This document shows positions 1-58,836 of a stretch of 64,000 bases of DNA, one piece after another. Positions within the stretch are counted from its first letter, which is position 1; each line of letters starts with the position of its first letter. Under the pieces are notes generated by a model that searched no databases, was not told the DNA's origin, and saw only the letters and a program-made list of their open reading frames with translations. This DNA is from Massilia rubra. GTDB lineage: Bacteria > Pseudomonadota > Gammaproteobacteria > Burkholderiales > Burkholderiaceae_D. Location of the stretch: NCBI RefSeq assembly GCF_011682065.1, contig NZ_VUYU01000019.1, positions 62,001 through 126,000 of the forward strand, in the 5' to 3' direction. The translations under genes were made by a program, and so were the position numbers.

Positions 1-3000
1 ATCGCGGCCCGAGCCGGGCTCGCGCGCGACAATGCGTTCATCGACGTACTGGTGGCCGACAAGGGCCTGCTGTACGCCATGGGGATCGTGCTGCGCAGGC
101 AGCGCTTTGTCATCTCGTACGATAGCATTGACGGCAAGGGCTTCTACCAGATTCACGATCCCGACACCTACGACGATGAGTTTTTCGGCGATACCGAACT
201 GGCCCTGCGCACCCACCTCGCGCATGCGTCGCAAGACGTCTGGGAACAATGCGTCGAGATGGCGCGCCACGCCGCGCAAGGCCTGGACAGGCGCCGCCGC
301 CCCTTGCTGGCGGCGCTGCTGCCGGATGTACCCGAGCTGGCCAACGAAATCGCCCTGATGTTGCCGCCGTATCGGGATAACCAGTCCATGTACTGGTCCG
401 CCAACGATGCCTGGCTGATGGTGTACGCCACCGCGCCCGAGGCGCTCGAGGCGCTGCGCGCGTGGCCGTATCGGCCGATGGGACCTTTTCACGAGTCGCT
501 CACCGCCGTGGCCTGCGCGATCCAGGATCGCGGGGACGGCGCCTTGGAGGCGCTCCAGGATGGCGTCGACAAGGAAGCGGCGGCCAACGGGCTGGCGTGC
601 ATCGGCACGGCACAATCGATGACCGTGCTGGCACTGGGCTGCGGCCAGGGCCAGACACCGTTCACGCAACTGTGCGCCGCCGGCCAGCGCTGGCCGGAAG
701 TGGCCATGACGGTGCTGAGCCAACTGATCGCGAAGGACCACTGCGGCCCCGCCCGCGCACGCCAAGTGCTGGCCAGCATCATGCCGGTCCATGCCAGCCG
801 CGTTAGCGGCTTGAAGGCGCTGCTGCCCGCGCCGGCATGGAAAGTGCTGTCGGTGGCCGCCGCGCAGTTCATCACTGCGCGCGACTGCGCCGACGCGAGC
901 GAACTGCCGACGGTCCTGGTCGACCCGCCATGGCACGCGCCCGCACGCAAGGAAGCGCCGCCGTTCGCGCTGGCGCCCTTGCCGCTGGCGCCGGTCGAAA
1001 CCTGGAGCGAGGAAGAACGCCAGCGGTTGCGTGATGAATGGCGCAGTTTTCTCGGTTACACGAGCACTTCGCCGGAGGCACTGGCGCATGCGGTGGACGC
1101 GGTAGCGGCGGCCGATACCGACGGCAGCCTGGCGCGCTGGGTCGACTGCCTGCTGCCGGAGCGCGCGTTCCAGGGACGCACGCTGGAGATCCTCGCACTG
1201 CCCGCACCGGTCAATGCCAGGGTGTGGAACGCGCTGGCCGCCATGGGCATGGACCACCCCGGACAGGCCATCGCCACGCTCGGCCTGGCCGCCCTGCCAG
1301 GACTGGTCGAGACCTGCATCCGCACCCCGGGCCAGCACATAGGCTATGCGCAGTACTTCGGCGCCGTCGAACTGGCGCTGCCGGTGGCGCGCACCTACGC
1401 CACGCTCAAGGGGCGCGCTCTGATCGCTACGGCGCGCGCCTGGCTGCTGCGCTTTCCCGAACACGCCGCCTGCGGCCTGATCGCCGTCGCCCTGGGCCAG
1501 CCCGGCCCGGACCGCGACCACGCGCGGCGCGCCCTGCGCCTGGTGGCCGCCAACGGCCAGCGCGCATTGGTGACGACCGTCGCCAGCCGCTATGGGCAGG
1601 ATGCGGTGGGCGAGGCATTGGGCGCCATGCTCGATGAAAGCGCACTGCGGCTGTATCCCCCAAAAATCGGCAAACTGCCGCCGTTCTGGACACCGCTGGT
1701 CTGGACCCGCCCCCTGTTGGCCGGCAGCGGCAAGGCCTTGCCCGACGCGGCGCTCAATGCGATCGGCATCATGCTGCGTTTTCCGCACAGCGACGGCGTG
1801 TACGCCGGCGTGACCGAGCTCAAACAGGCCTGCACCCCGGCCTCGCTGGCCGACTTTGCGTGGGAGCTTTTCCGCGCCTGGATCGAGGACGGCGCCAAAC
1901 CGAAGGAGGACTGGGCCTTTTATGCGCTTGGCCTGCTCGGCAACGACGATAGCGCGCGCAAGCTCACGCCGTTGCTGCGCGCCTGGCCCGGAGAAAAACT
2001 GCACACGCGCGCCGTCGCCGGGCTGGACATCCTGGCAATGATCGGCACCGATGCGGCCCTGCTGCATCTCAACGGCATCGCGCAAAAGCTCCAGTTCAAG
2101 GCCTTGCAGGACCGCGCGCAGGAAAAGATCGCCGCCATTGCCGAGGTCCGCGGCTTGAGCGCCGAGGAACTGGAAGACCGCCTCGCGCCCGACCTGGGCC
2201 TCGATGACCGCGGTACGCTGCTGCTCGACTTCGGGCCGCGCCAGTTCCGGGTCGGCTTCGATGAAGCACTCAAGCCTTTCGTGCGCGACGAGCGCGGCGC
2301 GCGCCTGGCCGACCTGCCCAAACCGAAGCAGAATGACGATCCCGATCTGTCGGCGGCGGCGGTTGAGCGCTACAAACAGCTCAAGAAAGACGCGCGCACC
2401 CTCGCCGCGCAGCAGGTGCGGCGCTTGGAGAGCGCGATGTGCGCCCAGCGCCGCTGGCCGCGCCGGGTATTCCTCGATTTCCTGGCCGGCCACCCACTGC
2501 TGCGCCATCTGGTGCAGCGCCTGGTGTGGGGCGTGTATGGCGCCGACGGCGCTTTGCTGGCCTGCTTCCGGGTCGACGTGGACGGCGCCTTCAGCGACGC
2601 CAGCGACGACAGTTTTACGCTGCAGGACGGCGACGACACGCTGGTCGGCATCCCGCATCCGGTGGACCTGCCGGCGGCCATGGCCGCCGCCTTCGGCCAG
2701 CTGCTCGCCGACTACCAGCTGCTGCAGCCGTTCGCGCAGCTCGGGCGCGACACATACCGGCTGGACGCCGATGACGAGGGCCTGCACGCCCTGGAGCGCT
2801 GGCGCAAAATCGTACCGACGGGCAGCGTGCTTGGCCTGGTCAACCAGGGCTGGCGGCGCGGGCAAGCATGGGACGGCGGCGCGATCGGTGAATTTACCAA
2901 GATGCTCGGCGGTGCTTACATTGCCGAACTAAGCATTTCGCCGGGTATCATTGCGGGCATGGCTAACGAAAGCGCGGAACAAAGGCTAGAGCAACTGGTG

Positions 3001-3132
3001 GTGCGGCACGGCGACGGGTCGGGCCGCATGGGCGGCAGCGTGGCGCTGTCCTCGCTCGATGCGGTCATGCTCAGTGAGTTGATCAGGGATATGGAATGGT
3101 TATGCGCCGCCGAAGGCGCGCGTGCGATGTGA
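1..3132 (+). CDS. YehI-like DUF4132 protein, copy 1 (5' end outside window)
   Basis: This frame is open from the first base of the window. The residues before the first possible internal start (GTG at 52) match the aligned region of the other copies, where FIDVLVADKGL corresponds to FLDFLVADKGL, so the gene begins upstream. The 1,043 visible codons lack roughly 190-200 residues, including any WGR domain. The middle is an alpha-helical, HEAT-like region. The DUF4132 region starts near visible residue 810 (AMCAQRRW), contains HPLLRHLVQRLVWG and ends with SELIRDMEWLC. It has a slightly longer C terminus than its paralogues. The family is uncharacterised; E. coli YehI is the reference member. It lies 12 nt upstream of copy 2, so cotranscription is likely. 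Family assignment is secure and function is not. Confidence 0.9.
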   Translation: MAARAGLARDNAFIDVLVADKGLLYAMGIVLRRQRFVISYDSIDGKGFYQIHDPDTYDDEFFGDTELALRTHLAHASQDVWEQCVEMARHAAQGLDRRRRPLLAALLPDVPELANEIALMLPPYRDNQSMYWSANDAWLMVYATAPEALEALRAWPYRPMGPFHESLTAVACAIQDRGDGALEALQDGVDKEAAANGLACIGTAQSMTVLALGCGQGQTPFTQLCAAGQRWPEVAMTVLSQLIAKDHCGPARARQVLASIMPVHASRVSGLKALLPAPAWKVLSVAAAQFITARDCADASELPTVLVDPPWHAPARKEAPPFALAPLPLAPVETWSEEERQRLRDEWRSFLGYTSTSPEALAHAVDAVAAADTDGSLARWVDCLLPERAFQGRTLEILALPAPVNARVWNALAAMGMDHPGQAIATLGLAALPGLVETCIRTPGQHIGYAQYFGAVELALPVARTYATLKGRALIATARAWLLRFPEHAACGLIAVALGQPGPDRDHARRALRLVAANGQRALVTTVASRYGQDAVGEALGAMLDESALRLYPPKIGKLPPFWTPLVWTRPLLAGSGKALPDAALNAIGIMLRFPHSDGVYAGVTELKQACTPASLADFAWELFRAWIEDGAKPKEDWAFYALGLLGNDDSARKLTPLLRAWPGEKLHTRAVAGLDILAMIGTDAALLHLNGIAQKLQFKALQDRAQEKIAAIAEVRGLSAEELEDRLAPDLGLDDRGTLLLDFGPRQFRVGFDEALKPFVRDERGARLADLPKPKQNDDPDLSAAAVERYKQLKKDARTLAAQQVRRLESAMCAQRRWPRRVFLDFLAGHPLLRHLVQRLVWGVYGADGALLACFRVDVDGAFSDASDDSFTLQDGDDTLVGIPHPVDLPAAMAAAFGQLLADYQLLQPFAQLGRDTYRLDADDEGLHALERWRKIVPTGSVLGLVNQGWRRGQAWDGGAIGEFTKMLGGAYIAELSISPGIIAGMANESAEQRLEQLVVRHGDGSGRMGGSVALSSLDAVMLSELIRDMEWLCAAEGARAM

Positions 3133-3144
3133 ATTGAAGGACAG

Positions 3145-6100
3145 ATGATGCGGCAATTTGAATTGAGCGATGACGTTTCGAACTCGGGCGACACCGCGCC
3201 CTGGCTTTCCTGCGGGCCGTTGGTCGATGTGCCGGCGGCGATGGCTGCAATCGCCCTTTCCTCGCGCCGTTTCCCCGGTGCGCCGCCGCGCACCGATGCC
3301 GATCAGGCGTGGAAGCTGTTCCTCAGCCATGCGCGCAACGAAAGAGCGCTGGACGCCGTCAGGTCCGACGCGCCGTTCCAGGATGGCGTGATCGAGGCCA
3401 CCGGGCGCATTGCGCAAGGCGTGCGCGCTGGCACACCGATGTCCGACGCGATCCTGCTTGCGGTTTCCACCTTGTTTTACGATAAGCTGGACGCATCGGA
3501 AGGCGCGCCCTTCGTCGATTTTTTGGTGGCGGAAAAAGGACTGCCCTACGCACTCGATGTGCTGCTGACCTGCCTGGAAAAGATGAGGATCAAGCGCACA
3601 TATACGGACGGCGTGCTCACATGGCACATCGCGGCCGACCGCGACTTGCAGTTTTCGCAGCATCCGCTTTTGTTCTCCCCGACTGAACTGGCGCTGCGCG
3701 CTCACCTCAGTCACGCCGCCCCGGCACTCTGGGAGCAATGCGCGCAGACGCTGCGCGAGGCGGTGCCGCGCATGCCCGAACAGCGCCAGGCGCTGCTGGG
3801 CGCCCTGCTGCCGGACCTGCCCGACGTGTCGGATGCAATGGTGCGCGCGCGCGGCTTCGTGCTGCGCTCGAACGACTCGTGGCTCAACACCACCGCCAGT
3901 GCATCCGTGCGCATGCAGGCGCTCGAATCGGGCAATCCGCACGAAGGCACGAATGGATTTTACGAGGTCCCCGCCGCCGTGGCGGCGGTGGTGCTGGAGC
4001 TGGGGGCCGAGGCCGTGGCGCTGCTGCGCAGCGGGGTACAGATCGATCTCGCTGCCGAGGGCCTGACCTGGATCGGCACACCCGACGCGGTGGAGATCCT
4101 GGCGCGCCGGGTGCTTGCGAGCGACAGCGGCAGGGCGCTCGAATTGCTCACCATGGCGGTGCGGCGCTGGCCGTACGCCGCACTGGCCGCATTGGCCGAG
4201 CTGAGCGCACCGGAACGCTACATGCCGCTCACGCTGCGTGATCTCCTTGCCGGTCTGGTGGCGGCCCATCTCGACGCCCTGCCGGCATTCAAGCCATGGC
4301 TATCGGAGTCTGCGGCGGCGCTGTTGGACACGATCATGGCCAGGATCGCCAGCGCCGGCGAGATCGCCGACGTCGCCGATCTGCCGCCGGTGCTGGTCAA
4401 TCCGCCCTGGTTGAAAACACGCAAGAAGGCAAAGGCGCTGTCGCTGGAACCGCTCGCACTGGCGCCGTCCGCACACTGGAGCGACCAGGAACGCGAGCAG
4501 ATGCGCCAGGAAGATCGCGACGGCGTGCCTACTGTTTTCGGCGATGCGTTCACGGTGCCACGCGACGCAGCTCAAGCCGCCGCCGTGGGCGACATGGCAG
4601 GAGTGCTTGCGGTGTGGGAGGCGTATGCGAGGCCGGGCAACAGCGCCGTGGGAAGCTGCGTGCACGCCTTTATCGACCTGCCGGCGCCGTATAACGCGGC
4701 GGTGTGGAACGCGCTGGCCGGGAATAAGATCGAATCGCCCGGCTACGCTGTGGCCACGCTTGGCCTGCACGGCCTGCCCGGTTATGTCACGATGTGCGAA
4801 CGGCGCCCGGGCACCGACCTTGGCTACATGCGGCACATCGCCGCCGTCGAACTGGCCGCGCCCATGGCGCGCGCCTACGTGATCCTGAAAGCGAAAGAAG
4901 TACGCGCCACCGCGCGCCGCTGGTTGCTGGCATATCCCGAACATGCCGCCTGCGGCCTGATCGCGCCCGCCCTCGGCAAGCCGGGCGCCGGCTGCGACCA
5001 GGCGGCCGACGTCTTGCGCATGCTGGCGGCGGCCGGCCACGACGCCCTGCTGATGCAGGTGGCGGGGCGCTACCAGCAGGCGGCGGTAAGCGCCGCCCTG
5101 CGCGCGCTGCTGGACCAGGACCCGCTCGAGATGGTCCCGGCAAAAATCCCCGTCGCTCCCGCGTTCTGGCGAGTCGACACGTTTACCCGTCCGCGCCTTG
5201 CCAGCAACGGCAAGGCGCTGTCCGACCATGCGCTCGACCTGCTCGGCGACATGCTGCGCTTTCCCCAGGGCGTGCGGGTCTACGCCGGCATCACCCAGGT
5301 GCGGCAGGCCTGCACGCCGGCCTCGCTGGCCGCGTTTGCATGGGACCTGTTCGGCGCCTGGGAGCTCGATTTCGGCAACCCAAAGGAAAACTGGGCCTTT
5401 GCCGCCATCGGCGGTGCTCGGCGACGACAACCTGGCGCGCAAGCTGGCGCCGATGATCCGCGACTGGCCCGGCGAAGGCTTGCATGCGCGGGCCGGATAC
5501 GGCCTCGATGTGCTGGCCGCAATCGGCACCGAGACCGCCATGATGCTACTGAGCGCGATCGCGCAACGCGGCGGCACGGCGAGCCTGCGCGAAAAGGCGC
5601 GCGAGGCGATAACGCAGGTCGCGGCGGCGCGCAACATGACCGCCGACGAACTGGAAGACCGCCTGACGCCAGAACTCGGTCTCGACGAGCAAGGCACCCT
5701 GCTGCTCGACTTCGGCCCGCGCCAGTTCCTGGTCGGCTTCGATGAAGCGCTCAAGCCATATGTGCGCGACCAGGACGGCGCGCCGCTGGCCGACCTGCCC
5801 AAACCCCGGCAAGGCGACGACGCCGACCTCGCGCGCGCCGCCACGGAGCGCTACAAGACACTCAAGAAAGACGTGCGCGGCATCGCCTCGCACCAGGTGC
5901 AGCGGCTGGAGATGGCAATGTGCACACAGCGGCGCTGGACGCCCGAGATCTTCCTGGCCTGCCTGGCTGGCCATGCGCTGGTGCGCCATCTGGTACGGCG
6001 CCTTGTCTGGGGCGTGTATCGCGACGGCCGGCTGGAAAGCTGCTTCCGGGTCGGCCAGGATGGCTGTGTCACCGACGGCGCCGACGACGCGTACGTGCTG

Positions 6101-6577
6101 GCGCAAGGCGACGATATCCGCATCGGCATCGCGCATGCGGTGGAGATGTCGGCCAGCGACACGGCGGCCTTCGGCGATCTGTTTGGCGACTATGAGCTGG
6201 TGCAGCCGTTTCAGCAGATGGGCCGCGATACGTACGCGCTGAGCACGGCCGAACTGGCATCGGGCCGTTTGCTGCGCTGGGACGGCGTGGTGGTGCCGAC
6301 CGGGCACCTGATCGGCCTGACCAAGCGAAGCTGGCGGCGCGGCCGCACGCAAGAGCGCAGCTACGTGCGCGACGCCAGCAAGGCCATGGCGGGCGGCTTG
6401 CTGGCCGAACTGACCTTCGAACCGGGCTTCATGGCCGCAATGGTCGACCAGCATCCCGAACAAACCTTGAAGCAGGTGCTGCTCACCGGCCCCGGCACGC
6501 AGGGCGCACCGCTGGCGGCGCCCGATCCGGTCGTCGCCAGTGAACTGATACGCGACCTGCAACAACTGTGCGTCTGA
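3145..6577 (+). pseudogene. YehI-like DUF4132 gene, copy 2: WGR domain deleted, +1 frameshift
   Basis: The start has tandem ATGs at 3145 and 3148. AAGGA at 3137-3141 fits the second one, which is the start conserved in all copies. The first ten or so residues (MRQFELSDDVS) match the paralogues, but the protein then jumps directly to GDTAPWL, a point after the WGR domain and linker elsewhere. About 75-90 codons are therefore missing in frame. Near 5411-5415 an extra G (atcggcggtgctcgg against ggcgtgctgggc in copy 3) shifts the reading frame. The remainder, with a complete DUF4132 region and the ASELIRDLQQLC end, continues intact in frame 2 to the TGA at 6577. If corrected, it encodes about 1,143 aa. 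As read, it gives an 866-residue protein without the C-terminal domain. A sequencing error is possible; the WGR loss is independent of it. It is closest to copy 3. Confidence 0.8.
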
Positions 6578-6613
6578 AACGGCGCCGGCAGAAATCCATT
6601 TTCCAGGACATGC

Positions 6614-9600
6614 ATGATGCGGCGATTTGAATTAGACGATGGCGTTTCCAGTAAATTCTGGGAAGTCGGGCAGGCCGGTTGCGAACTGCATATCCGCTTC
6701 GGCAGGATCGGCACCGCAGGACAAAGCAAACCGAAAACCTTCGCGGACGAAGCCACGGCGGCCGCCGCGCTGGTCAAACTGGTGCGCGAAAAGACCGCCA
6801 AGGGCTATGTGGAGACAAGCGCCGGGGCCTGCATCGCCGTGGTGGGCAATTCCGCTGCCGCCCCAGCAGCGCAACCGCCGGCCGGCGACATCGCCCCATG
6901 GCTCGCCTGCGGACCGGTGCTCGACCTGCCTACCGGCCTGGCCGCGCTGGCCCTGCCCTCGCGCCAGGCACCCGGTCCGGCGCCGATTACCGACGCCGAC
7001 CGCGCCTGGGATATGTACCTGCAGGTCGCGCGCCCGTACGGCGACCCGGCCATGTCCATCTGCGACACGCATCTGCACGCTGGCCTGAACGAGGCCATGC
7101 AGCGCATCCGGCAAGGCACGCGCAGCGGCAGCATGCTGTCGGATACGATCATGTTCGCCATCGCCGCCCAGTTCTGGTCACCAAAAGAATTCAATGGCGC
7201 CTTTCCTTTCCTCGATTTTCTCGCGGCTGAAAAAGGACTGCCTTATGCGGTCGACGTGATGTTAACCGCCATGCAACAACTGAGCGCCAATTCAATACGC
7301 GCGAGCGCCGCCATGCCCAACGAGCGCTGGCAGGTGCGCGCAATCGGGCCCGATGCGACGCTGACCGATACGTACTACCGTATCAGGACAAACCGGGCGC
7401 TTCACCAGCACCTCGTTCACGCTAACGAGGCAACGTGGAATCAGTGCATGCAAACGATTGGTGAGCGTCTGGCGCGTTTGCCAGCAGCCTACCGCGCGAA
7501 TCTGGCGCCCTTCCAACCCGACGCGCCACTTATCGCGCTGCGGCCCTTACCAGAGCAAGGAAACGAGACCTGCCGCCCTCCCGCGTCTCTTTCGCAGATG
7601 TACGCCACCCTTGCCAACGCCAGGGCACTGGTGATGGGCGCCGGTCGCGACACCGAGCTGTATCGTGACAGCGCGCTCACGGTCATGGCCACCTTGATCC
7701 GGGAACACGGCGCCGATGTCGCCACGCTGTTGCATGCCGCACCCACCATTGAGCTGGGCACCGAGGCGCTCACCTGGATCGGCACGCCGCTGGCCATCCA
7801 CACGCTCGGGCGCGAACTGGTGGAGGCCAGCCGTGGATTTTTCCGCCAGCCCGCCGTCGACGCGCGCCAGCGCTTGCGCGACGTCGTGCGGCGCTGGCCG
7901 CTGGCGGCGATCGCGGGCCTGGCACAGCTGATCGCCACCGAGGACCAGGTTCCGCAGGCGGTCCACGAGATGCTGGCCACGCTGGCCTACGAACACCTCG
8001 CAGTTCTTCCCGCTTTCAGGCCGTGGATAACGGCGCCGGCGGCGGCGGTGCTCGATGCGATCAGCGCCAGCTTCACCGACGACACGCTTGCCGCCGATGC
8101 CGACCTGCCGCCGGTGCTGGCCAATCCACCCTGGCTGGCGCCGCGCAAAAAGGCGGTCGCGGCGATGTCGCTGGCGCCGCTGCCGCTGGCGAGCGTCGCG
8201 CACTGGAGCGACGAGGAACGCGAAGAGATGCGCATGGAGGAGCGCGAGACGCTGTTTACTTACGCCACCCAGGCCACGGCGCCAGCGCACAGCGCGGCGG
8301 CCATCGCTGCCGGCGACACCGCCGGCCTGATCGCCATGTGGCAGGAAGCGGCGCAAGACAACAAGTTCTTCGCGGCCTGCGTGCATCTCATCGCCGACCT
8401 GCCGGCTCCCTGCAACGCGGCGGTATGGAACGCCACCGCCGGGCACCCGATCAATTCGCCCGGCTACGCGGTGGCAACCCTGGGCCTGAGCGGCTTGCCG
8501 GCCCTGGTGACGATGTGCGAGCAGCGTCCTGGCGACGACCTGGTGTACGCCCGCCACATCGCCGCGGTCGAACTGGCGGCGCCTATCGCACGCGCCTATG
8601 CGACCCTGAAAACGAGAACTGTGCGCGCCGCAGCCCGGCAATGGCTGCTGGCGTACCCGGAACACACCGCCTGCGCGCTGATCGCGCCGGCCCTGGGCAA
8701 GGCGGGCAACGTGCGCGAGCAAGCGGCCGACGTCTTGCGCATGCTCGCCGCCGCCGGCCACGACACCCTGCTGATGGAGGTGGCCGCGCGCTACCAGCAG
8801 CCTGCGGTCGGCGCCGCCCTGCGCGCGCTGCTCGACCAGGATCCGCTCGACCTGTATCCGGCAAAACTGGCAGCCGTACCGGATTTCTGGGCGCCGCGCA
8901 GCTGGCCCCGTCCGCACCTGGCCAGCAATGGCAAGGCGCTGGGCGACGCCGCCATCGACGCCCTCGGCGCCATGCTGCGCTTTGCGCAAGGGGAGCGCGT
9001 GTACGCCGGCCTGGCCCAGGTTCGCGCGGCATGCACGCCCGATTCGTTGGCCGCCTTTGCCTGGGATCTGTTCATCGCCTGGCAGAACGATGGCGGCAGC
9101 GCCCGCGAGAACTGGGCCTTCACCGCCCTGGGCGTGCTGGGCGACGACGACATCGCCAGGAAGCTCGGGCCGCTGGTACGCGAGTGGCCGGCCGACGCCA
9201 TGCATTCGCGCGCGGCATTCGGGGTCGACGTACTCGGCGCGATCGGCACCGATGTGGCCCTGCTGGAGTTGCGCGCCATTGTCAAGCGCTTCAATTCCGG
9301 AACGCTGAAAGAGAGCGCGCGCGCAAAAATCGCGCAGATTGCCGAGGCGCGCGGCATGAGCGCCGACGAACTGGAAGACCATCTCACGCCCGAACTGGGG
9401 CTGGACGAACAAGGCACGCTGCTGCTCGACTTTGGCGCGCGCCAGTTCCTGGTCGGCTTCGACGAAGCGCTGCGTCCTTATGTGCTCGACCCGCACGGCG
9501 CGCACCTGGCCGACCTGCCCAAGCCACGCAAGGACGACGACACCGAACTGGCGGGTGCAGCCGTGGTGCGCTACAAACAGCTCAAGAAAGATGTGCGCGC

Positions 9601-10315: not shown

Positions 10316-10352
10316 GACGGCACGCGCGCACACCATCACAACAGGACTGAGA

Positions 10353-14108: not shown

Positions 14109-14143
14109 ACGGTACGGTGGCGCTTCAACTTTGTGGAGACAGA

Positions 14144-17809: not shown

Positions 17810-17844
17810 GCGGCGCGACCACACTTTTACATTCAGGAAGAACG

Positions 17845-21549: not shown

Positions 21550-21598
21550 TGTGATGGCACGCCCTGATAACTACGATAACGAGAAAATGCACGAGAAC

Positions 21599-24500: not shown

Positions 24501-25267
24501 CGAGCGCTGTCGACACCTACAAACTGCTCAAGAAAGATGCCCGCACCATCGCCACGCAACAGGTAAAACGGCTGGAGGTGGCAATGTGCACGCGCCGCCG
24601 CTGGGATGGCGACGCCTTTCTCGCGCTGCTGGCCAGGCATCCGCTGGTGCGGCACCTGGTGCAGCGCCTGGTATGGGGCGCCTACCAAGCCGATTCGTCG
24701 GGCGGCGCGCGCCTGGCCGGCTGCTTCCGGGTCGGCCCCGACGGCGCGCTGACCGACGCCGCCGACGACGACTACATACTGCCGGCCGGCGCGCGCGTCG
24801 GCATCGTGCATGCGCTCGAACTGCCGGCCAACGATGCGGATGCATTCGGCAAGCTGTTCGCCGACTACGAACTGCTGCAGCCCTTCCCCCAGATCGGCCG
24901 CGAGACGTATGCCTTGACGCAGGACGAACTGGCCGCCGATGAACTGCTGCGCTGGGTGCACCTGGAAATGCCGGCCGACCGCCTGATGGGATTGACGAAC
25001 AAAGGCTGGCACCGGGGAAAAGCGCGCGACGCAGGTGGCATCTGGGCTTACAACAAGGATATCGGCGCGGGACGGACCGTGGAGCTGGGGATCTATCCGG
25101 GCCTGGACGTGAATAACCTCAACGACTACTCGGAACAGACCTTACAGGCGGTCAAGGTCGGCAGCATGAACCCATGGGGCGACATCGGCACGCCGCAGCC
25201 GCTGTCGGTGCTCGATCCGATTGCCGCCAGTGAGCTGATTCGCGATCTCGAATTTTTGCGCGCATGA
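21599..25267 (+). CDS. WGR and DUF4132 protein, YehI-like, copy 7
   Basis: The product has 1,222 residues from the ATG at 21599 (MRRFELNDS). Upstream in-frame ATGs at 21551 and 21587 exist. The site at 21587 would add MHEN and cannot be excluded, because the ribosome-binding site is weak for each. The WGR domain carries FGKIGSAG, followed by a linker rich in Pro, Ala and Val. The HEAT-like middle includes VLQNPPWTAP. DUF4132 starts near residue 994 (AMCTRRRWDG) and has a short insertion (SSGGARLAGC). It is the last copy of the array: its stop lies 52 nt before the AAA ATPase gene, linking the array to the yehL-M-P-Q-like genes. Its last quarter (GLDVNNLNDY) differs from all other copies. Confidence 0.92.
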   Translation: MRRFELNDSVSSKFWEVTQDGSDVTVCFGKIGSAGKAQTKNHPDAAAAHAAMDKLIREKTAKGYVETGAGSDAQAVPPEPAPVVAPSPEIPVAPAAGIAPWLAVSPLIDVPPALMALALPTRQFPGTPPVVDADKSWTRFLKRAREVQGVEAKYSGASWKTAIDEATSRIKQGLRSGSAASDMVLLAVSTVFDKTDAVAADTSFLDFLVAEKGLPYAVGILLDLEKANVDRRYAYEHRVCIDDIDTDWFDGSHGAYTNVELALRTHLVHAPQDVWLACVQMVRDNLDAIPRNRQPLFGVLLPDAPELSDALVQGGGYLHDMTGWLRMSVRDPESLALLDSVRDAYYLFYDKPAFVATAIRDRGVDAVAVLKHGVTEKITADALACIGTPDAIGALALACGMRNGSPSRLEAAVRRWPWAAIAGLSELLGHDKQVPDVARSTLSRLVPDHIAALPSLRPWLSPAALKVLDDMAARFCEPGEMAASADLPPVLQNPPWTAPRQARPKALDLAPLPLAAVERWSAAERQFVLNEKRHKYNPYEQATFVTPADLIAAGDVDAVVALWKTRQNPRMNLHAEVRLIADLPPPFNKAVWAALANHEFNSPGYAIATLGLDCLPGLVTMCELRPEEDLCYALHFGAVELAFPVAHAMATLKNKPARAIARRWLLANPEHSACGLLAPALGKAGKTRDAAAAALRLLATHDHGDVLKDVARRYGVPAVDSAVQAMLDEDPLDLHPARIPTLPSLWTPRSWHRPRLRGNGKPLSDEALGLIGVMLQFPRSEGVYAGLEQVRQACTPASLDAFAWDLFRAWHDLGGDPSEKWAFTALGVFGNDNSARKLTPLIRAWPGESLHARAVTGLDVLAGIGTDLALMLLNGVALKLKFKALQDSARDKIKQIADARGLTPEELEDRLAPTLGLDEQGSLLLDFGPRQFRVGFDEALKPYVRDAGGARLADLPKPNKSDDAGLAASAVDTYKLLKKDARTIATQQVKRLEVAMCTRRRWDGDAFLALLARHPLVRHLVQRLVWGAYQADSSGGARLAGCFRVGPDGALTDAADDDYILPAGARVGIVHALELPANDADAFGKLFADYELLQPFPQIGRETYALTQDELAADELLRWVHLEMPADRLMGLTNKGWHRGKARDAGGIWAYNKDIGAGRTVELGIYPGLDVNNLNDYSEQTLQAVKVGSMNPWGDIGTPQPLSVLDPIAASELIRDLEFLRA

Positions 25268-25319
25268 GAAAAGACGTTATCATCTCGGCAAATCCAAAAA
25301 CGGCGCACGACAACCATCC

Positions 25320-26435
25320 ATGAGTCGGACCACAGCAATGAGCAAAACCAAAACCGCAGCGATGCAGCGCCCACCGGCCGAAATCCAGTACGCGGGCGAG
25401 CTGGCCAAACTGGCCAAGTCCGACAAGGCGCCGCGCCCGCCCGGCTGGGCCCTGAGCCTGAACGCGGCGCGCGCTTTCATCAGCGGCGACGAGGCCCTCG
25501 GCATCGAACGCAAGGTGGTGGCGCCGGTTGCCGCCATCGAGCGCATGCTGGTGACGCTGGCCACCGGGCGTGGATTGATGCTGGTCGGCGAACCGGGCAC
25601 CGCCAAGTCCATGCTGTCGGAGTTGCTGGCCGCCGCGGTATGCGGGCAGTCGACCCTGACCATCCAGGGCGGCGCCTCGATCACCGAAGACCAGATCAAG
25701 TATTCGTGGAACTACGCGCTCCTGATCAACGAAGGACCGAGCCCGCGCGCGCTGGTCCCGGCGCCGCTGTACCACGGCATGCGCGACGGCCTGATCGTGC
25801 GCTTCGAAGAAATCACGCGCGCCCCGCTGGAGGTGCAGGATTGCCTGCTCGGCATGCTGTCGGACCGGGTCATGGCGGTGCCCGAACTGGAAAACGAGCA
25901 CGCCATGCTGTACGCGCGCGAAGGCTTCAACATCATCGCCACGGCCAATACGCGCGACCGCGGCGTCAACGAAATGAGCGCCGCGCTCAAACGGCGCTTC
26001 GACTTCGAGACCGTGTTCCCGATCCTCGACTTCGGGCACGAACTGGCGCTGGTGGAGCAGGCCTCGGCCCGCCTGCTGGAACGCAGCGGCATTCCGCATC
26101 GCGTGCCTGGCCCGATCCTCGACCTGCTGGTGTCGACCTTCCGCGACCTGCGTTCCGGTGGCGGCAAGGGCGCGCCGGACGGCATGGACAAGCTGGCGGC
26201 GGTCATGTCGACCGCCGAAGCGGTCAATGTGGCGCATGCGGTCGGCGTGCGCGCCTGGTTCCTGGAACAGCGCGCCGGCAACGCGGCCGACTTGGTCGAC
26301 TGCATCGCCGGCACCGTGGTCAAGGATAATCCGGACGACCGCGCCAAGCTGCGCCGCTACTTCGAGCAGCGCGTCGCGCGCCGCGAGGGCGATCACTGGC
26401 GCGACTACTTCAACGCGCGCCACCGCCTGCCGTGA
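25320..26435 (+). CDS. MoxR-type AAA+ ATPase, YehL-like
   Basis: The 371-residue AAA+ ATPase is close in length to E. coli YehL. Visible parts are Walker A GEPGTAKS (90-97), a Walker B position reading LIVRFEEI (158-165) with Glu where most MoxR proteins have Asp, sensor 1 ATANTRDRG (207-215) and a candidate arginine finger in KRRFDFE (224-230). MoxR ATPases form hexamers that remodel or load partners and usually work with a VWA protein, here encoded two genes downstream. The start could be 25320 or the ATG at 25338 (MSKTK); neither has a strong ribosome-binding site. Its stop overlaps the next gene by 4 nt (GTGA), so translation is coupled. Identification as the YehL-type ATPase rests on sequence plus gene order. 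Confidence 0.9.
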   Translation: MSRTTAMSKTKTAAMQRPPAEIQYAGELAKLAKSDKAPRPPGWALSLNAARAFISGDEALGIERKVVAPVAAIERMLVTLATGRGLMLVGEPGTAKSMLSELLAAAVCGQSTLTIQGGASITEDQIKYSWNYALLINEGPSPRALVPAPLYHGMRDGLIVRFEEITRAPLEVQDCLLGMLSDRVMAVPELENEHAMLYAREGFNIIATANTRDRGVNEMSAALKRRFDFETVFPILDFGHELALVEQASARLLERSGIPHRVPGPILDLLVSTFRDLRSGGGKGAPDGMDKLAAVMSTAEAVNVAHAVGVRAWFLEQRAGNAADLVDCIAGTVVKDNPDDRAKLRRYFEQRVARREGDHWRDYFNARHRLP

Positions 26436-28765
26436 CACGCGTGCCTCAACGCGCGCCGCTGATCATCGGCGTGCGCCACTTCAGCCCCGCCTGCGCGCGC
26501 CTGGTGGTGCAGCGCATTGCCGAACTGCGTCCGCGCCACGTGCTGATCGAAGGCCCGGCCGACTTCAACACGCGCCTTGGCGAACTGGCGCTGCCGCACA
26601 AGCTGCCGCTGGCGATCTACAGCTATTTTTCGGCCGCCGAAGACGCCGTCGAGCGGCGCGCCTCGTGGTCGCCGTTTGCACTGCATTCGCCCGAATGGCA
26701 AGCCATGCAGGCCGCGCGCGCCTGCGGCGCACAGTTGCGCTTCATCGACCTGCCGGCCTGGCACGACGCCTTTGCGCGCATCATGAACCGCTACGATGAC
26801 GACGCGCCGGACGCTGCCGAGGCCTACGAAGACGCATTGTGCCGCGCAATGGCGATCGACGGCCGCGACGCCCTGTGGGACCATCTGTTCGAAGGCGAGC
26901 TGGCCCCCGATGAACTGTCGGCCCGGCTCGATGCGCACTTCGCCAATCTGCGCGCGGGCGACCCTGGCTCGCCGGGCAACCAGGCGCGCGAGGCGATGAT
27001 GGCGCGCCATGTCGCCTGGGCCATGCACCAGGACGACGGCCCGGTGCTGGTGGTTTGCGGCGGCTACCATGCGCCGGCGCTGGCGGCGCTGTGGCGCACG
27101 ATTCCGGCCGCCGACTGCGCCAGCGAGCCGGCCACGCCGCTGCCCCCCGACGCACCCGGCCTGCGCTACGGTTCCTACCTGGTGCCCTACCACTTCAAGC
27201 GCCTCGATGCCTACGACGGCTATGCCTCGGGCATGTCCTCGCCCGCCTGGTACGAATGGGCGTGGACGCTCGGCCTGGCCGGCGCCGGCAAGGAACTGCT
27301 GCGCACCGTGCTGGCGCGCCTGCGCGCGAAAAAGCTGCCCGCCTCCACCGCCGACGTGATTGCGATCCACAGCCGCGCAATGGGCCTGGCGCGCATGCGC
27401 GCGCACCCGACGCCGCTGCGCAGCGACTGGCTCGATGCGCTGGCCGGCAGCCTGGTCAGCCAGGCGCTGGACGTGCCCCTGCCCTGGACTTACCGGGGCC
27501 GCGTGCGCGCGGGCACCGATGCGGCGCTGGTGGAAGTGATGGCGGTGCTGGCCGGCGACGCCGTCGGCGAACTGGCGCCCGGCACGCCGCAGCCGCCGCT
27601 GGTGGCCGCCGTCGACGTCGAACTGGCGGCGCTCGGCATCGTTATCCCAAGCCAGGTCACGATCGACCTGCTCGACCCGGCCCAGCGTCCGCGCAGCCGC
27701 GCCCTGCACCGCCTCGCCCTGCTCGACATTCCCGGCATCGTGCGCACGGCGGGGCCGAACCTGGCGCTCGGGCGCGGCCAGCAAGAAAGCTGGGACCTGC
27801 GCGCGCCGCTCGAACAGCGCGCCGCGCTGATCGAAGCGGCCACCTACGGCGCCACCCTGCATGACGCGGCGCGCGCGCGCCTCGAAGAAATCCTGCGCCA
27901 GCGTCCCGCCGGCGGCAGCCGCATCGGCGCCATTACCGGCGCCCTGAATCGCGCCGCCTTCGCCGGCCTGGCCGACGTGAGCGAGCGCCTGCTCGATGAA
28001 CTGCACGACGCCATCGGCCAGGAAGCGCACTTCGGCGAGCTCGGTACGCCGATGCAGGTGCTGTTTGCGCTGTTCCGCCACGGCGACGCGCTCGGCGTGA
28101 GCGGCAGCGCGGTGCTGCAAACGGCCATCAGCGCCGCGTTCGACCGCGCCCTGTGGCTGGCGGAAGCGGCCGGTGGCGTGGCGCCGATGGAGCAGGATGC
28201 CCACATCGGCACCTACAGCGCCATCGCCATGCTGGTGCGCGAAGCACGCGCCGCCGTGCTGCCCGGCGTCGAAGGCTTGCGCGCGCTGGCCGTGTGCCGG
28301 CGCGTCGCCGCCAGCATGGATGCGGCGCCGGTCAGCCGTGGCGCGGCGCTCGGCCTGGTGCTGGCCAGCGATGCCGACCCCGACGCCGGCGCCCTGGCCA
28401 GCGACCTGCTCGCGTCCCTGCCCCCGGCCTTGGTGGGCGACGCGCTGGCCGGCCTGCTGGCACTGGCGCGCCAGTCATTGTGCGACGACGTGCGCTTCGT
28501 CAAGGCGCTCGACGCGCTGGTGCGCGCGCTCGACGACGCCGATTTTGTGCTGGCGATGCCGGCGATGCGCGCCGCCTTTACCTGGCTGCCGACCCAGGAA
28601 CGCGGCGCGCTGGCCGTCGATGTGCTCAAGCTGCACAACGCCGGCCATCGCTCGCAGCGTTCGCTGACCGGCCCCCTCGCCGTGGCGCCCGAGCTGCTGG
28701 CGCGGCACGATGCGCTCGAACGCGCCGCCGCCTTGCGCCTGGCCATCTGGGGAATCGCACCATGA
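26432..28765 (+). CDS. DUF5682 family protein, YehM-like
   Basis: The 777-residue protein starts at a GTG inside the GTGA overlap with the ATPase gene and is close in length to E. coli YehM. The N-terminal 220 residues contain GVRHFSPAC (13-21), HVLIEGPAD (36-44) and VCGGYHAPAL with His213. Such a spaced set of Gly-x-x-His, Glu and second Gly-x-x-His motifs recalls the EreA/ChaN/TraB-TIKI hydrolase superfamily; this is an inference. The rest is Ala- and Leu-rich, apparently alpha-helical, with no membrane segment. It is always reported as a neighbour of MoxR ATPase and VWA genes, so it probably belongs to the same complex or pathway. Family membership is fairly secure, while biochemical function is unknown. 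Confidence 0.87.
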   Translation: MTRVPQRAPLIIGVRHFSPACARLVVQRIAELRPRHVLIEGPADFNTRLGELALPHKLPLAIYSYFSAAEDAVERRASWSPFALHSPEWQAMQAARACGAQLRFIDLPAWHDAFARIMNRYDDDAPDAAEAYEDALCRAMAIDGRDALWDHLFEGELAPDELSARLDAHFANLRAGDPGSPGNQAREAMMARHVAWAMHQDDGPVLVVCGGYHAPALAALWRTIPAADCASEPATPLPPDAPGLRYGSYLVPYHFKRLDAYDGYASGMSSPAWYEWAWTLGLAGAGKELLRTVLARLRAKKLPASTADVIAIHSRAMGLARMRAHPTPLRSDWLDALAGSLVSQALDVPLPWTYRGRVRAGTDAALVEVMAVLAGDAVGELAPGTPQPPLVAAVDVELAALGIVIPSQVTIDLLDPAQRPRSRALHRLALLDIPGIVRTAGPNLALGRGQQESWDLRAPLEQRAALIEAATYGATLHDAARARLEEILRQRPAGGSRIGAITGALNRAAFAGLADVSERLLDELHDAIGQEAHFGELGTPMQVLFALFRHGDALGVSGSAVLQTAISAAFDRALWLAEAAGGVAPMEQDAHIGTYSAIAMLVREARAAVLPGVEGLRALAVCRRVAASMDAAPVSRGAALGLVLASDADPDAGALASDLLASLPPALVGDALAGLLALARQSLCDDVRFVKALDALVRALDDADFVLAMPAMRAAFTWLPTQERGALAVDVLKLHNAGHRSQRSLTGPLAVAPELLARHDALERAAALRLAIWGIAP

Positions 28766-29913
28766 GCGGATCATTGACGCTGCCCGATCCGCTGGTGCGC
28801 TGGCGCCTGCTGCTGGGCGAAGCCGCCGAAAGCTGCCTCCCTTGCCCGCCTGGAGCGGCCAGCGCCGCCGATGACGCCCTGGAGTGGCTCTACGGGCGCG
28901 ACCCGGACCGCCTGGCGCGCGGCGAACGCCAGCAATCGCAGGACCGTACCGGCTCGCCGGACGGCGCGTCGGTACTGAGCACGCCCGACTGGATCAACGC
29001 GATCCACGAATTGTTCCCGCAAGAGGTGATCGAGCGTCTCGAACGCGACGCGGTCGAGCGCTTCGGCATCGATGACGTGGTGACCAACCTGGAGGTGCTG
29101 GAACGGATCGAACCATCCGAAGCGCTGCTGCGCGCCGTGCTGCATACCAAGCACCTGATGAACCCCGATGTGCTGTCGGCGGCGCGCCGCCTGGTGGCGG
29201 AAGTGGTGCGCCGCATCATGGAAAAACTGGCGACCGAAGTGCGCCAGGCTTTTGGCGGCAGCCGCGACCGGCGCCGCCCGTCGCGCATCGCGGCGGCCGC
29301 CAATTTCGATTTCAAGCGCACCGTTGTGAGCAACCTGAAACACTGGGACCCGGAGCGGCGCAAACTGTACATCAAGCGGCCGGCCTTTATCAGCCGCGTC
29401 AAGCGCCATGCCGAGCGCTGGGACATCATCCTGCTGATCGACCAGAGCGGCTCGATGGTCGATTCGGTGATCCACTCGGCGGTGATGGCGGCCTGCCTGT
29501 GGCAGCTGCCCGGCATGCGCACTTCGCTGATCGCCTTCGACACCGAGGTGGTGGATCTGACGGCCGATGTATCCGACCCGGTCGAACTGCTGATGAAAGT
29601 GCAGCTTGGCGGCGGCACCAATATCGCCGGCGCGGTGGCGTATGCGCAGTCGCTGGTGGTTAATCCGCAGCGCACGGTGGTGGTGCTGGTCAGCGATTTT
29701 TACGAAGGCGGCCATGACACGGAACTGGTACGGCGCGTGCAGGCGCTGGTGTCGGCCGGGGCCACCGTGCTGGGCCTGGCGGCGCTCGATTCGGCCGCCA
29801 ATCCGAGTTACGACCGCGAGACGGCGGCGCGCCTGGTGCGCGTTGGCGCCCACATCGCCGCCATGACGCCGGGCCAGCTGGCCGCCTGGCTGGCGGAGAA
29901 AATAGCGCAATGA
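28762..29913 (+). CDS. VWA domain protein, YehP-like
   Basis: The protein has 383 residues from the ATG at 28762, which forms an ATGA overlap with the preceding stop. A much longer reading through the upstream region of the same frame is an artefact of high GC. The C-terminal half is a von Willebrand factor A domain with a complete metal-ion-dependent adhesion site: DQSGS (D227, S229, S231), T286 in GGGTN and D312 in SDFYEGG. The N-terminal 200 residues are helical and charged. VWA partners of MoxR ATPases (for example ViaA with RavA, NorD with NorQ) bind a substrate or target and regulate the ATPase. Here it should pair with the product of the gene at 25320. It is coupled to the SWIM gene by another ATGA overlap. 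Confidence 0.92.
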   Translation: MSGSLTLPDPLVRWRLLLGEAAESCLPCPPGAASAADDALEWLYGRDPDRLARGERQQSQDRTGSPDGASVLSTPDWINAIHELFPQEVIERLERDAVERFGIDDVVTNLEVLERIEPSEALLRAVLHTKHLMNPDVLSAARRLVAEVVRRIMEKLATEVRQAFGGSRDRRRPSRIAAAANFDFKRTVVSNLKHWDPERRKLYIKRPAFISRVKRHAERWDIILLIDQSGSMVDSVIHSAVMAACLWQLPGMRTSLIAFDTEVVDLTADVSDPVELLMKVQLGGGTNIAGAVAYAQSLVVNPQRTVVVLVSDFYEGGHDTELVRRVQALVSAGATVLGLAALDSAANPSYDRETAARLVRVGAHIAAMTPGQLAAWLAEKIAQ

Positions 29914-31871
29914 GCACCCGTACCGATTTGCTGGAACTGAGCGTGGACGCGCTGACCGCCCTGTCGAACGCGGGCTTTGTGAAGCGCGCGCAGAAAGATG
30001 TCGTCGAAGGCAAGCTGCCCGAGATCGAGCAGCAGCCCGACGGCGCCGTGCTGGCGCGCTACCCCGACGGCGTCACCACCACCCTGCCCCCGGGCCTGCC
30101 GCTGCGCGAGGCGCGTTGCAGCTGCCCCGCCACGGGCCTGTGCCGGCACCGGGTGACCCTGGTGCTGGCTTATCAGTCGAAATACGCCGGCGGCGCCAGC
30201 GAGGCAGTCGCCGACGCCGCGCCGTGGTGCCCGTCGACCCTGGCCGGCGCGGTGGACCTGCTGCCGCGCGTAACGCTCGAGCAGGCGCGCCGCATGGCGG
30301 GCGCACGCCCGGCGATCAGGCTCACGGCCGGGTCCACGCCGAATGCCCGCCTGCCGATGTGCGACGTGCGTTTTTTGTCGCGTACCAGCCTGGCGCTGGC
30401 GCGCTGCGACTGCAAGCAGGCCGAGAACTGCGCCCACATCGCGCTGGCCGTGTGGGCGTTTGCCCAGGGCGAGCGCCAGCAACCGGGCTTTTCCAGCATG
30501 ACGGTGGAGCTGGACCTGGCTGCCGACGCGGCGCCAACGCCGGTGCAGGACGGCGCCAGCGCGGTCGAGGCGATCGTGGCGCTGGCCTCCCAGCTCTGGC
30601 TCGATGGCACCAGCCAGAATCCCCTGATCCTGGACACGCGCTTCGAAAAGGCGCTGCAGGAAGCCAGCCAGCTCGGATGGCGCTGGGTGGTCGAAGCACT
30701 GACCCAGCTACGCCAGGCCGTCGCCGGCCAGCACGCGCGCGCGAGCAATGCCGATCCGGCCACCCTGCTGCACCTGGTATCGATGCTGATGGCGCGCCTC
30801 GGCGCGGCGCGTGCCCGCACCCCGCTGCCGGCCAGCCAGATCCTCGGCGTGGGTGTTTCCGGCGAAGTGGCGCTCGACCACCTGCGCCTGGTGCCGATGG
30901 GTAGCCAGTGCTGGTCCGACGAGGCGGTCGACGGCGTGCGCATGATCTGGGCCGATCCCGACACCCTGGCCGTCACCGTCATGGAAAAAACCTGGCCGCG
31001 CGCCGACAGTGGCGCCACTGCCATCGCGCTGCGCGACCGGCGCCTGGTCGGCATGCCGTTGCACCGGCTGGCGGCCAGCCAGATCGTCACGCGCGCGGCC
31101 AAGCGGCGCGCCAACGGCTTGCTGACGGTCGGCACCGGCGCGACGCAGACGTCGGCGCTGCCGCTCTCCGGCGGCGCCTGGGACACGCTGGCAAGCCCGC
31201 TGCGCCAGCCGGACGTGGCCAGCCTGCGCGCGCACCTGCGCTCCCTGCCGCCCGATTTCGTGCGTCCGCTGCACGCGATCGAGCATGTGCATGTGGTGCC
31301 GGTGGCGGCGCTGGTCGACTGCCTGTGGGATGCCGCCAGCCAGACCTTGTGCGCACGCGTGCAGCTGGCCGCCGGGGATGACAATCTGTTGCTGTTGCGC
31401 CTGCGGCACGACGCCGCCACGCCCGGCGCCATCGATGCCCTGGCGCGCGCGCTGGAGGACGACCCGCTGGCAGTGGCGGGCAGCGTGTCGAGCGAGGCCG
31501 GGCAATTGAGCATGACGCCGCTGGCGGTGCTCACGGCGCAGGGCTTGCAGGTGCCGCAACTGGCGGCGCAAGGCACGCCCGTGAACCTGGCGCGGGGCCA
31601 GGGCGACGACAAGAGCGCGCTGCACGCCTTATTGGAAGGGACGATGAACCTGCTGGCGCAAAGCCTGCGCCAGGGAGTGCGGCATCAGGGCGACGGCGCC
31701 GTGGCGCGCGCCACGGAACAAGCGGCAGCTTTGCGCGCGGCGGGCCTGGCGCGTTGCGCCGATGCCCTGGCCGCAGCGCTGGAGAGCATGAAAAGCAGCG
31801 ACCCGACGATGCTGCCTGAGCGGCTGGCGGCGCTGTATGCGCTGCTGCACACCCTGGGCAGTGACAGCTAG
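29910..31871 (+). CDS. SWIM zinc-finger protein, YehQ-like, with two SWIM-like motifs
   Basis: The 653-residue protein starts in an ATGA overlap with the VWA gene. A SWIM motif of the form CxC-x5-CxH is seen at residues 70-80 (CSCPATGLCRH). A second, CDCKQAENCAH, lies at 166-176, so two zinc-binding sites of the same kind are likely. The remaining 450 residues are Ala/Leu-rich with no recognisable enzyme motif. SWIM domains bind zinc and have been linked to DNA or protein binding. Gene order places it as the last member of a yehL-M-P-Q-like operon. Its TAG stop overlaps the TAG stop of the convergent gene on the other strand within a single CTAG. Confidence 0.9.
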   Translation: MSTRTDLLELSVDALTALSNAGFVKRAQKDVVEGKLPEIEQQPDGAVLARYPDGVTTTLPPGLPLREARCSCPATGLCRHRVTLVLAYQSKYAGGASEAVADAAPWCPSTLAGAVDLLPRVTLEQARRMAGARPAIRLTAGSTPNARLPMCDVRFLSRTSLALARCDCKQAENCAHIALAVWAFAQGERQQPGFSSMTVELDLAADAAPTPVQDGASAVEAIVALASQLWLDGTSQNPLILDTRFEKALQEASQLGWRWVVEALTQLRQAVAGQHARASNADPATLLHLVSMLMARLGAARARTPLPASQILGVGVSGEVALDHLRLVPMGSQCWSDEAVDGVRMIWADPDTLAVTVMEKTWPRADSGATAIALRDRRLVGMPLHRLAASQIVTRAAKRRANGLLTVGTGATQTSALPLSGGAWDTLASPLRQPDVASLRAHLRSLPPDFVRPLHAIEHVHVVPVAALVDCLWDAASQTLCARVQLAAGDDNLLLLRLRHDAATPGAIDALARALEDDPLAVAGSVSSEAGQLSMTPLAVLTAQGLQVPQLAAQGTPVNLARGQGDDKSALHALLEGTMNLLAQSLRQGVRHQGDGAVARATEQAAALRAAGLARCADALAAALESMKSSDPTMLPERLAALYALLHTLGSDS

Positions 31872-56692: not shown

Positions 56693-56719
56693 GTTCAACA
56701 ACCTTCTACAAATTTCATG

Positions 56720-58717: not shown

Positions 58718-58836
58718 TATTAACAATTCTCAATATAAGTTTGCACGTTGCAAGAACAGAGCCCGCCATCGTGCCATGTATTGACTGACAACACAACTTG
58801 TCTGTTGTAAATATGAGAAGAGAAACAAGGCGAGCT

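What the first reader, a model, noticed from the sequence alone, without database searches (positions are those of the whole stretch)
1..31871. Seven-fold expanded YehI array feeding one complete yehL-M-P-Q-like module
The sequence shows at least seven WGR/DUF4132 genes in a row and then single genes for a MoxR ATPase, a DUF5682 protein, a VWA protein and a SWIM protein, all on one strand. From memory, E. coli has the same set (yehI, yehL, yehM, yehP, yehQ) with one main yehI gene. Amplifying only the large WGR component suggests it is the recognition or target-specific part, with the ATPase/VWA pair as shared machinery. MoxR-VWA pairs elsewhere remodel or load partner proteins, and such modules have been proposed to act in conflict with invaders. 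Defence or self/non-self recognition is one hypothesis; metal handling or nucleic-acid repair are others.
Basis: partly seen in the sequence, partly recalled or inferred. Interest (0 to 1): 0.88.

Follow-up and report, generated by a model that had tools for sequence, protein, structure and literature searches.

The report
Ten-copy YehI array, one shared machine
A Massilia bacterium carries ten tandem, old and diverged copies of one large protein gene in front of a single four-gene ATPase module, and the same lopsided amplification is seen in distant bacteria, which suggests interchangeable adaptor subunits serving one shared machine of still unknown function.

Summary
In this Massilia genome the array has ten tandem DUF4132 (YehI-type) genes, not seven: eight full-length, one frame-broken, one internally deleted, in a ~40.7 kb same-strand block before single MoxR, DUF5682, VWA and SWIM genes. 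Four other Massilia species have the array (3-11 copies, remnants counted). Copies are old paralogues (74 of 90 within-species pairs 45-60% identical) with orthologues in the same order (77-93%), under purifying selection; only A9 is in all five species. Eight of eight arrayless relatives opened lack the block at that site. In 80 named loci the four machine genes look single while DUF4132 varies (two or more in 30 of 80). Two E. coli strains have three. YehM-class DUF5682 has DUF4132 nearby in 31 of 31 places in the family, the other class in 0 of 42; one of these, read here, carries DUF5691 instead. Best reading: HEAT-like solenoid adaptors sharing one MoxR-VWA remodelling machine; targets unknown. 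Defence is possible but unsupported: ordinary chromosomal neighbours, no convincing defence-model match, no positive selection, and the divergent middle region is no more divergent than in homologues of other lineages at matched distance.

The parts
1..3132 (+). A4: WGR-DUF4132 gene, fourth of ten; begins 519 bp upstream of the window (C29:61482)
3145..6577 (+). A5: DUF4132 copy with a broken frame (open frames 3145-5745 and 5198-6577)
   Evidence: pieces searched apart, not joined
6614..10315 (+). A6: WGR-DUF4132 gene, 1233 aa
   Evidence: orthologues 77-78% identical in G002 and G016; dN/dS 0.35-0.39
10353..14108 (+). A7: WGR-DUF4132 gene, 1251 aa; residues 100-1251 modelled (pLDDT 92.4)
14144..17809 (+). 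A8: WGR-DUF4132 gene (open frame from 14099; start placed at the ATG of MRRFEL)
17845..21549 (+). A9: WGR-DUF4132 gene, the only copy with an orthologue in all five Massilia arrays; lowest dN/dS (0.17-0.21, overlapping A8 at 0.19-0.24)
21599..25267 (+). A10: WGR-DUF4132 gene, nearest to the machine genes (open frame from 21551)
25320..26435 (+). MoxR-type AAA+ ATPase (YehL-like), Walker-A-like GEPGTAKS
   Evidence: (sequence printed; my stricter pattern missed it); dN/dS 0.02-0.05
26432..28765 (+). DUF5682 protein (YehM-like, 47% identical to YehM): N-terminal alpha/beta domain with weak ChaN/TraB similarity, C-terminal helical repeat
28762..29913 (+). VWA_CoxE protein (YehP-like) with MIDAS-type motif DQSGS
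29910..31871 (+). SWIM zinc-finger protein (YehQ-like) with two CxC...CxH motifs

Best explanation
An adaptor repertoire on one machine. The MoxR ATPase and VWA protein form a shared ATP-driven remodelling engine that works with the DUF5682 protein (possibly an enzyme) and the SWIM protein. Each WGR-DUF4132 protein is an interchangeable subunit: a long HEAT-like alpha-solenoid that contacts the engine through its conserved C-terminal DUF4132 domain and a particular target through its divergent N-terminal half, WGR adding nucleic-acid or partner contact in most copies. One copy (A9) serves a core role and the others add target specificities. Shown: genes, order, copy numbers, orthology, selection, recurrence, a partner swap, predicted folds. 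Inferred: docking, target binding, the engine's action on any substrate, and that the 40.7 kb block is one transcript.
For: Machine genes single while DUF4132 varies: 65 of 80 loci show exactly one hit of each machine gene, the other 15 having cut, split or frame-broken hits and no second gene in the ORF listing; 30 of 80 carry two or more DUF4132 hits within a 10 kb flank. In 392 genomes of the family, YehM-class DUF5682 has DUF4132 within 15 kb in 31 of 31 places (14 with two or more), the other class in 0 of 42; the one member of the other class that was read has DUF5691. Old, individually kept copies: within-species pairs 43-67% identical, 74 of 90 between 45 and 60%; orthologues 77-93% in the same order; dN/dS 0.17-0.40. 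Copy sets differ by species and only A9 is in all five, so a fixed hetero-complex of all copies is unlikely. Conserved C-terminus (0.57-0.73 in each window from 601 to 1050) against 0.29-0.34 over 201-400. Predicted solenoid: most of the 50 PDB hits listed are HEAT/ARM-type solenoid proteins, and the profile finds one HEAT-type entry at E 0.0004 and two weaker ones. Several separate expansions on the tree.
Confidence: 0.5

Rival explanations
1. Client model: the DUF4132 proteins are the substrates, not the guides. MoxR-VWA matures or inserts a metal or cofactor into several related DUF4132 enzymes, as NorQD does for nitric oxide reductase.
For: MoxR-VWA pairs are known for metal insertion (PMC13036017, abstract seen). 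The C-terminal DUF4132 region has residues invariant in 76 sequences, among them H940, R972, H1001, D1019, Y1020 and Q1028 of the modelled fragment. DUF5682 has weak similarity to ChaN, a haem-binding family. yehM is among genes mutated in copper-evolved E. coli (PMC12409786, passages seen).
Against: No metalloenzyme gene lies directly beside the array; an aconitase-family pair is about 20 kb downstream. No solved structure matched the DUF4132 region by sequence and fold hits were solenoids. The sister chassis class has no DUF4132 nearby.
Confidence: 0.2
2. Defence or self/non-self system: each copy senses a different invader or genotoxic signal and triggers DUF5682 as effector.
For: Presence/absence of the block at one site and copy turnover with broken copies. 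MoxR-vWA systems have been proposed as conflict systems (PMC7159879, passages and section 7 seen). DUF4132 and WGR genes rise on DdrO depletion in Deinococcus (PMC8533742, passage seen). A LexA-like box with one mismatch lies before E. coli yehF.
Against: Ordinary chromosomal neighbours and no defence match in the neighbours scanned. A7 has no match in 50,697 phage records; DUF5682 has one distant match. No positive selection. No LexA-like box before the Massilia array in four of five species; in the fifth the one match lies inside the coding region.
Confidence: 0.2
3. Mostly passive expansion: tandem duplication by recombination, one copy needed, the rest slowly decaying.
For: 11 of 41 array copies broken or remnants against 0 of 20 machine genes, nominal Fisher p 0.011, the copies being related by descent. 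Copies A1, A3, A4 and A6 have higher dN/dS (0.27-0.40) than A7-A10 (0.17-0.24).
Against: Intact copies are old and still under purifying selection in all eight orthologue groups tested. Amplification in distant lineages is hard to explain as accident.
Confidence: 0.15

Closest known systems
Escherichia coli yehF-yehH-yehI-yehK-yehL-yehM-yehP-yehQ locus
   Same: The five gene types in the same order and strand; DUF5682 47% identical to YehM; E. coli strains also vary in DUF4132 number, three annotated full-length in two strains opened.
   Different: Ten copies here, no gene called in the 52 bp between the last copy and MoxR (yehK position), another genomic site, and no LexA-like box before the array of this genome.
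MoxR-vWA ternary conflict systems (Kaur et al. 2020, PMC7159879; passages and section 7 seen)
   Same: A MoxR ATPase with a vWA partner plus a further component.
   Different: The paper names four types (VMAP, inactive STAND, FtsH, beta-propeller); DUF5682, SWIM and YehL do not occur in its main text.
NorQ-NorD, RavA-ViaA and CbbQ-CbbO chaperone pairs (NorQD abstract seen; RavA-ViaA from search listing abstracts; CbbQ-CbbO recalled)
   Same: MoxR with a VWA partner; Walker-A-like and MIDAS-type motifs present here.
   Different: No known client enzyme gene directly beside it; extra DUF5682, SWIM and amplified DUF4132 genes.
SWIM-DUF5691-MoxR-DUF5682-VWA operon in the same genome (C45)
   Same: Same chassis gene types.
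   Different: DUF5691 and no DUF4132; 0 of 42 DUF5682 places of this score class in the family have DUF4132 within 15 kb. Only this one locus of the class was read.

Membership tests
YehI-L-M-P-Q module | DUF4132, MoxR, DUF5682, VWA_CoxE, SWIM in this order on one strand | tested here: met
YehI-L-M-P-Q module | DUF5682 of YehM class rather than the sister class | tested here: met
   47% identical to YehM, 28% to the sister protein at C45; Pfam score 305 bits, in the DUF4132-linked class
MoxR-vWA ternary conflict systems (Kaur 2020) | MoxR plus vWA core | tested here: met
MoxR-vWA ternary conflict systems (Kaur 2020) | Third core component VMAP, inactive STAND, FtsH or beta-propeller | tested here: not met
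   Pfam scan at E 0.001 found none on the module proteins; beyond these only the neighbours were scanned, and whether Pfam holds a model for each component was not checked
Anti-phage defence system | Match to a known or candidate defence model | tested here: not met
   PADLOC, 16 protein scans: one weak partial WGR match on A6 (E 0.0014, 58 of 973 model positions), no other match
Anti-phage defence system | Protects against phage or plasmid | not testable with these tools
   needs experiment
Tiki/ChaN/TraB superfamily (DUF5682 N-terminal domain) | Profile similarity to ChaN or TraB models | tested here: inconclusive
   18 of 44 members match ChaN (best E 0.0032), 3 of 44 TraB (best E 0.0013) at the loose limit of E 5; the window protein scores 12.5 bits against a ChaN cut-off of 27.7; hhalign against 24 TraB-family sequences E 0.014, hardly better than the MoxR control at 0.026
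NorQD-like metal-insertion chaperone | Dedicated metalloenzyme client gene beside it | tested here: not met
   direct neighbours are Sel1 and metZ-like genes; a client encoded elsewhere is not excluded

The most novel reading that the evidence does not exclude
A bacterial receptor-repertoire system: one ATP-driven execution module served by a tandem library of large alpha-solenoid sensors, each tuned to a different target, expanded separately in several bacterial lineages and updated by duplication, deletion and decay, with the partner exchangeable between DUF4132 and DUF5691 chassis.
Probability: 0.22. Interest if true: 0.85.

Novelty: new variant of a known kind. Interest (0 to 1): 0.6.

Why it matters
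No function for the yeh genes of E. coli was found in anything read here. This comparison separates a fixed four-gene chassis from a variable partner, names the partner as the part to study, points to A9 as the likely core copy, and shows that natural E. coli strains already differ in partner number. It turns a set of uncharacterised genes into a concrete, testable design: shared engine, interchangeable solenoid subunits.

Tried and rejected
Dosage as the reason for the array: rejected, since within-species copies are 43-67% identical. A hetero-complex that needs every copy: rejected, since Massilia atriviolacea keeps two full-length copies and the copy sets differ. SOS control of the Massilia array: no LexA-like box before the array of this genome; the two perfect boxes in L001 lie at the lexA gene. 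It may apply in E. coli and Intestinirhabdus. Over all loci, 12 of 53 had some box at one mismatch or less with three patterns; no chance expectation was computed for that scan. Hypervariable sensor face: the middle region is the least conserved, but a matched control shows no array-specific excess, so it is not used as proof. DUF5682 as a Tiki-type hydrolase: suggestive Pfam matches, profile comparison inconclusive, no meaningful PDB sequence relative, and full-length Foldseek returned mainly helical repeats. The viral structure library gave nothing below E 0.001 for DUF4132. Viral contigs: no match to the patterns of one copy, a search that finds close relatives only. Plasmids: 20 records match A7, several of chromosome size. 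Gain or loss of the block within Massilia could not be decided: the deciding branch has support 0.158. Rows dropped: four of 77 DUF5682 places listed (two partial, two below the cut-off). The literature searches named in the report found no account of the array; most subscription journals are not held.
Full report
What is there. The window is G000:C29:62001-126000. From C29:53203 to C29:93871 (window 31871) the block lies on one strand: ten DUF4132 genes, then MoxR, DUF5682, VWA_CoxE and SWIM. Window copies are A4 (cut by the window edge), A5 (broken frame) and A6-A10; A1-A3 lie upstream. A2 is a 369 aa copy whose middle is missing. A3 has no WGR, nor have its orthologues in G002, G004 and G016 (alignment). 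Machine genes overlap by 4 bp; other gaps in the window are 12-52 bp. That the block is one transcript is inference. GC is 0.65-0.72 over window 1-32000 and 0.59-0.67 after it. The genome also has three lone DUF4132 genes (C46, C63, C74), a second module at C41 (three shorter DUF4132 genes, MoxR, DUF5682), and a third DUF5682 operon at C45 without DUF4132.

Which organism. Same-genus genome G014 has a contig of the same length as a Massilia atriviolacea record, with its module at the same place, so the window comes from a Massilia.

Not a one-strain oddity. Of 16 other same-genus genomes searched, four (G002, G004, G014, G016) have the array. Counting broken copies, the five species hold 10 (G000), 11 (G002), 9 (G004), 3 (G014, one a short remnant) and 8 (G016); 30 of 41 are full-length and 11 broken or remnants, while 20 of 20 machine genes are whole (Fisher p 0.011, nominal). 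Within-species pairs of full-length copies are 43-67% identical, 74 of 90 between 45 and 60%; orthologues between species are 77-93% identical and in the same order. Only A9 has an orthologue in all five. In eight of the twelve arrayless genomes opened, no module gene lies between metZ and the nearby Sel1 gene; in seven of these lexA and dnaB are also in view, the eighth contig ends too early, and G011 has a further small open frame there. G009 and G012 lack the block yet are as close to the window genome by metZ (97-98%) as G004, G014 and G016 (97-98%), so the whole block was gained or lost within this group; which of the two is undecided.

Selection. Nei-Gojobori dN/dS for 18 array orthologue pairs is 0.17-0.40: A9 0.17-0.21, A8 0.19-0.24, A7 0.22-0.24, A10 0.24, A3 0.27-0.30, A4 0.34, A6 0.35-0.39, A1 0.39-0.40. 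MoxR is 0.02-0.05, DUF5682 0.17-0.20, SWIM 0.13. No 50-residue window pooled over eight pairs exceeds pN/pS 0.54; a few single-pair windows with few changes reach or exceed 1.

Anatomy. Paralogue identity in this genome is about 0.6 over the first 100 residues (WGR), 0.29-0.34 over 201-400, and 0.57-0.73 over 601-1050. A matched control weakens the reading of the middle as a diversified sensor face: at equal C-terminal identity, array paralogues and 11 homologues of other lineages compared between species have similar middle identity (0.383, n=29 pairs, against 0.404, n=7, in the 0.65-0.70 bin). AlphaFold2 gives a confident model of A7 residues 100-1251 (pLDDT 92.4): a long helical repeat and a C-terminal region with beta strands. 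Most of the 50 PDB matches listed are HEAT/ARM-type solenoid proteins, at low TM and none below E 0.001; the sequence profile finds WGR entries and HEAT-type entries. DUF5682 is modelled at pLDDT 91: an N-terminal alpha/beta domain, with residues such as H16, E40, R186, E187 and H213 invariant in 44 sequences, and a helical repeat. In Pfam scans of those 44, ChaN (18 members) and TraB (3) are the most recurrent further families (next HAD and GATase_3 with 2 each); that TraB belongs with ChaN in the Tiki superfamily is recalled. Profile comparison with TraB is inconclusive. MoxR has a Walker-A-like GEPGTAKS (sequence), VWA a MIDAS-type motif, SWIM two CxC-CxH motifs.

Recurrence. 65 of 80 show exactly one hit each of MoxR, DUF5682, VWA and SWIM; the other 15 have hits that are cut by contig ends, split or frame-broken, and the ORF listing shows no second machine gene. 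DUF4132 counts within the 10 kb flank are 0 in 8, 1 in 42, 2 in 18 and 3 in 12, partial hits included; larger arrays are undercounted. Actinomadura kijaniata has six matches at 3.3-3.5 kb spacing beside its DUF5682, and another genome of the window's family (G306) five, four before MoxR and one after SWIM. On a tree of 150 copies the 33 Massilia module-1 and lone copies form one clade (support 0.991); of 29 loci with two or more copies on the tree, 5 are strictly monophyletic, many others group with near relatives, and some, as in Glycomyces, are old splits. So several expansions are separate, not all. In 392 genomes of the window's family (by GTDB; Burkholderiaceae, recalled), DUF5682 places fall into two score classes: 31 of 31 of the lower class, to which YehM-type proteins belong, have DUF4132 within 15 kb (14 with two or more), and 0 of 42 of the higher class do. 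One search scored at most eight candidates per genome, so eleven places were added for the own genus, without which three of the 31 would be missed; one search scored two per genome and so left out module 1 of four Massilia; four of its 77 places were dropped. The one member of the higher class that was read, C45, has SWIM-DUF5691-MoxR-DUF5682-VWA.

Context and literature. Upstream lie Sel1, lexA, DUF29 and dnaB genes, downstream metZ-like, purF-like and other ordinary genes. PADLOC gave one weak partial WGR match. A7 has no match in the phage collection; DUF5682 has one distant match (25% identity) in an unannotated phage record. Kaur 2020 names four MoxR-vWA system types (section 7) and does not contain the terms DUF5682, SWIM or YehL. 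The Deinococcus paper reports DUF4132 and WGR genes upregulated on DdrO depletion, though not in an irradiated irrE mutant set-up as a control of induction, and says MolR was described as a LexA regulon member (one passage seen). A copper-evolution paper lists yehM among mutated genes (passages). Searches for DUF4132 (3 papers), for DUF5682/DUF5691/YehM/YehP (30 of 48 shown, no DUF5682 or DUF5691 in those), for yehI (30 of 45 shown) and for combinations showed no description of the array in the titles and abstracts listed.

Judgement. The lopsided amplification is real, old, shared between species and recurrent. The best reading is an adaptor set on one remodelling machine; client and defence readings remain open; passive expansion explains part of the decay but not the maintained copies.

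Noticed in passing
L018:4306-11862 (G000:C45): A sister operon SWIM-DUF5691-MoxR-DUF5682-VWA without DUF4132; 0 of 42 places of this DUF5682 score class in the family have DUF4132 within 15 kb. The chassis carries a different partner.
   Followed up: partly
L005:5109-17122 (G000:C41) and L015, L016, L017: A second module with shorter DUF4132 genes, itself with two to four DUF4132 matches in four Massilia species.
   Followed up: partly
L003, L004, L002 (G000:C46, C74, C63): Three lone DUF4132 genes without a machine beside them, near YfdX, SUFU/GGDEF and histidine-kinase genes. On the tree C63 falls inside the Massilia array clade, as if it had left the array; C46 and C74 branch next to it.
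   Followed up: partly
L001:10880-11989, L011:14240-16945, L012:1453-3015, L007:9515-12607: Several array copies have lost inner parts yet keep an open frame (369, 901, 520 and 1030 aa): mini-copies or decay.
   Followed up: no
L105:8183-19429 and L106:7086-18302: E. coli strains with three annotated full-length DUF4132 genes before yehK-L-M-P-Q; 21AH057 has annotated breaks in yehL and yehM while its DUF4132 genes are whole.
   Followed up: partly
L024:4450-4465: LexA-like box with one mismatch just before E. coli yehF; a similar one before the first DUF4132 gene of Intestinirhabdus (L033:4035).
   Followed up: no
phage record MT835988.1:11274-12767 (hit H51): An unannotated 14 kb phage record from a faecal sample encodes a stretch 25% identical to DUF5682 (66% of the query, E 2e-17).
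   Followed up: no
L135:2794-6291: In arrayless genome G011 a 1165 aa open frame sits between Sel1 and lexA; the region may take up other genes.
   Followed up: no
window 54677-58726: Two adjacent DUF805-containing proteins of similar length (675 and 668 aa) in tandem on the minus strand.
   Followed up: no
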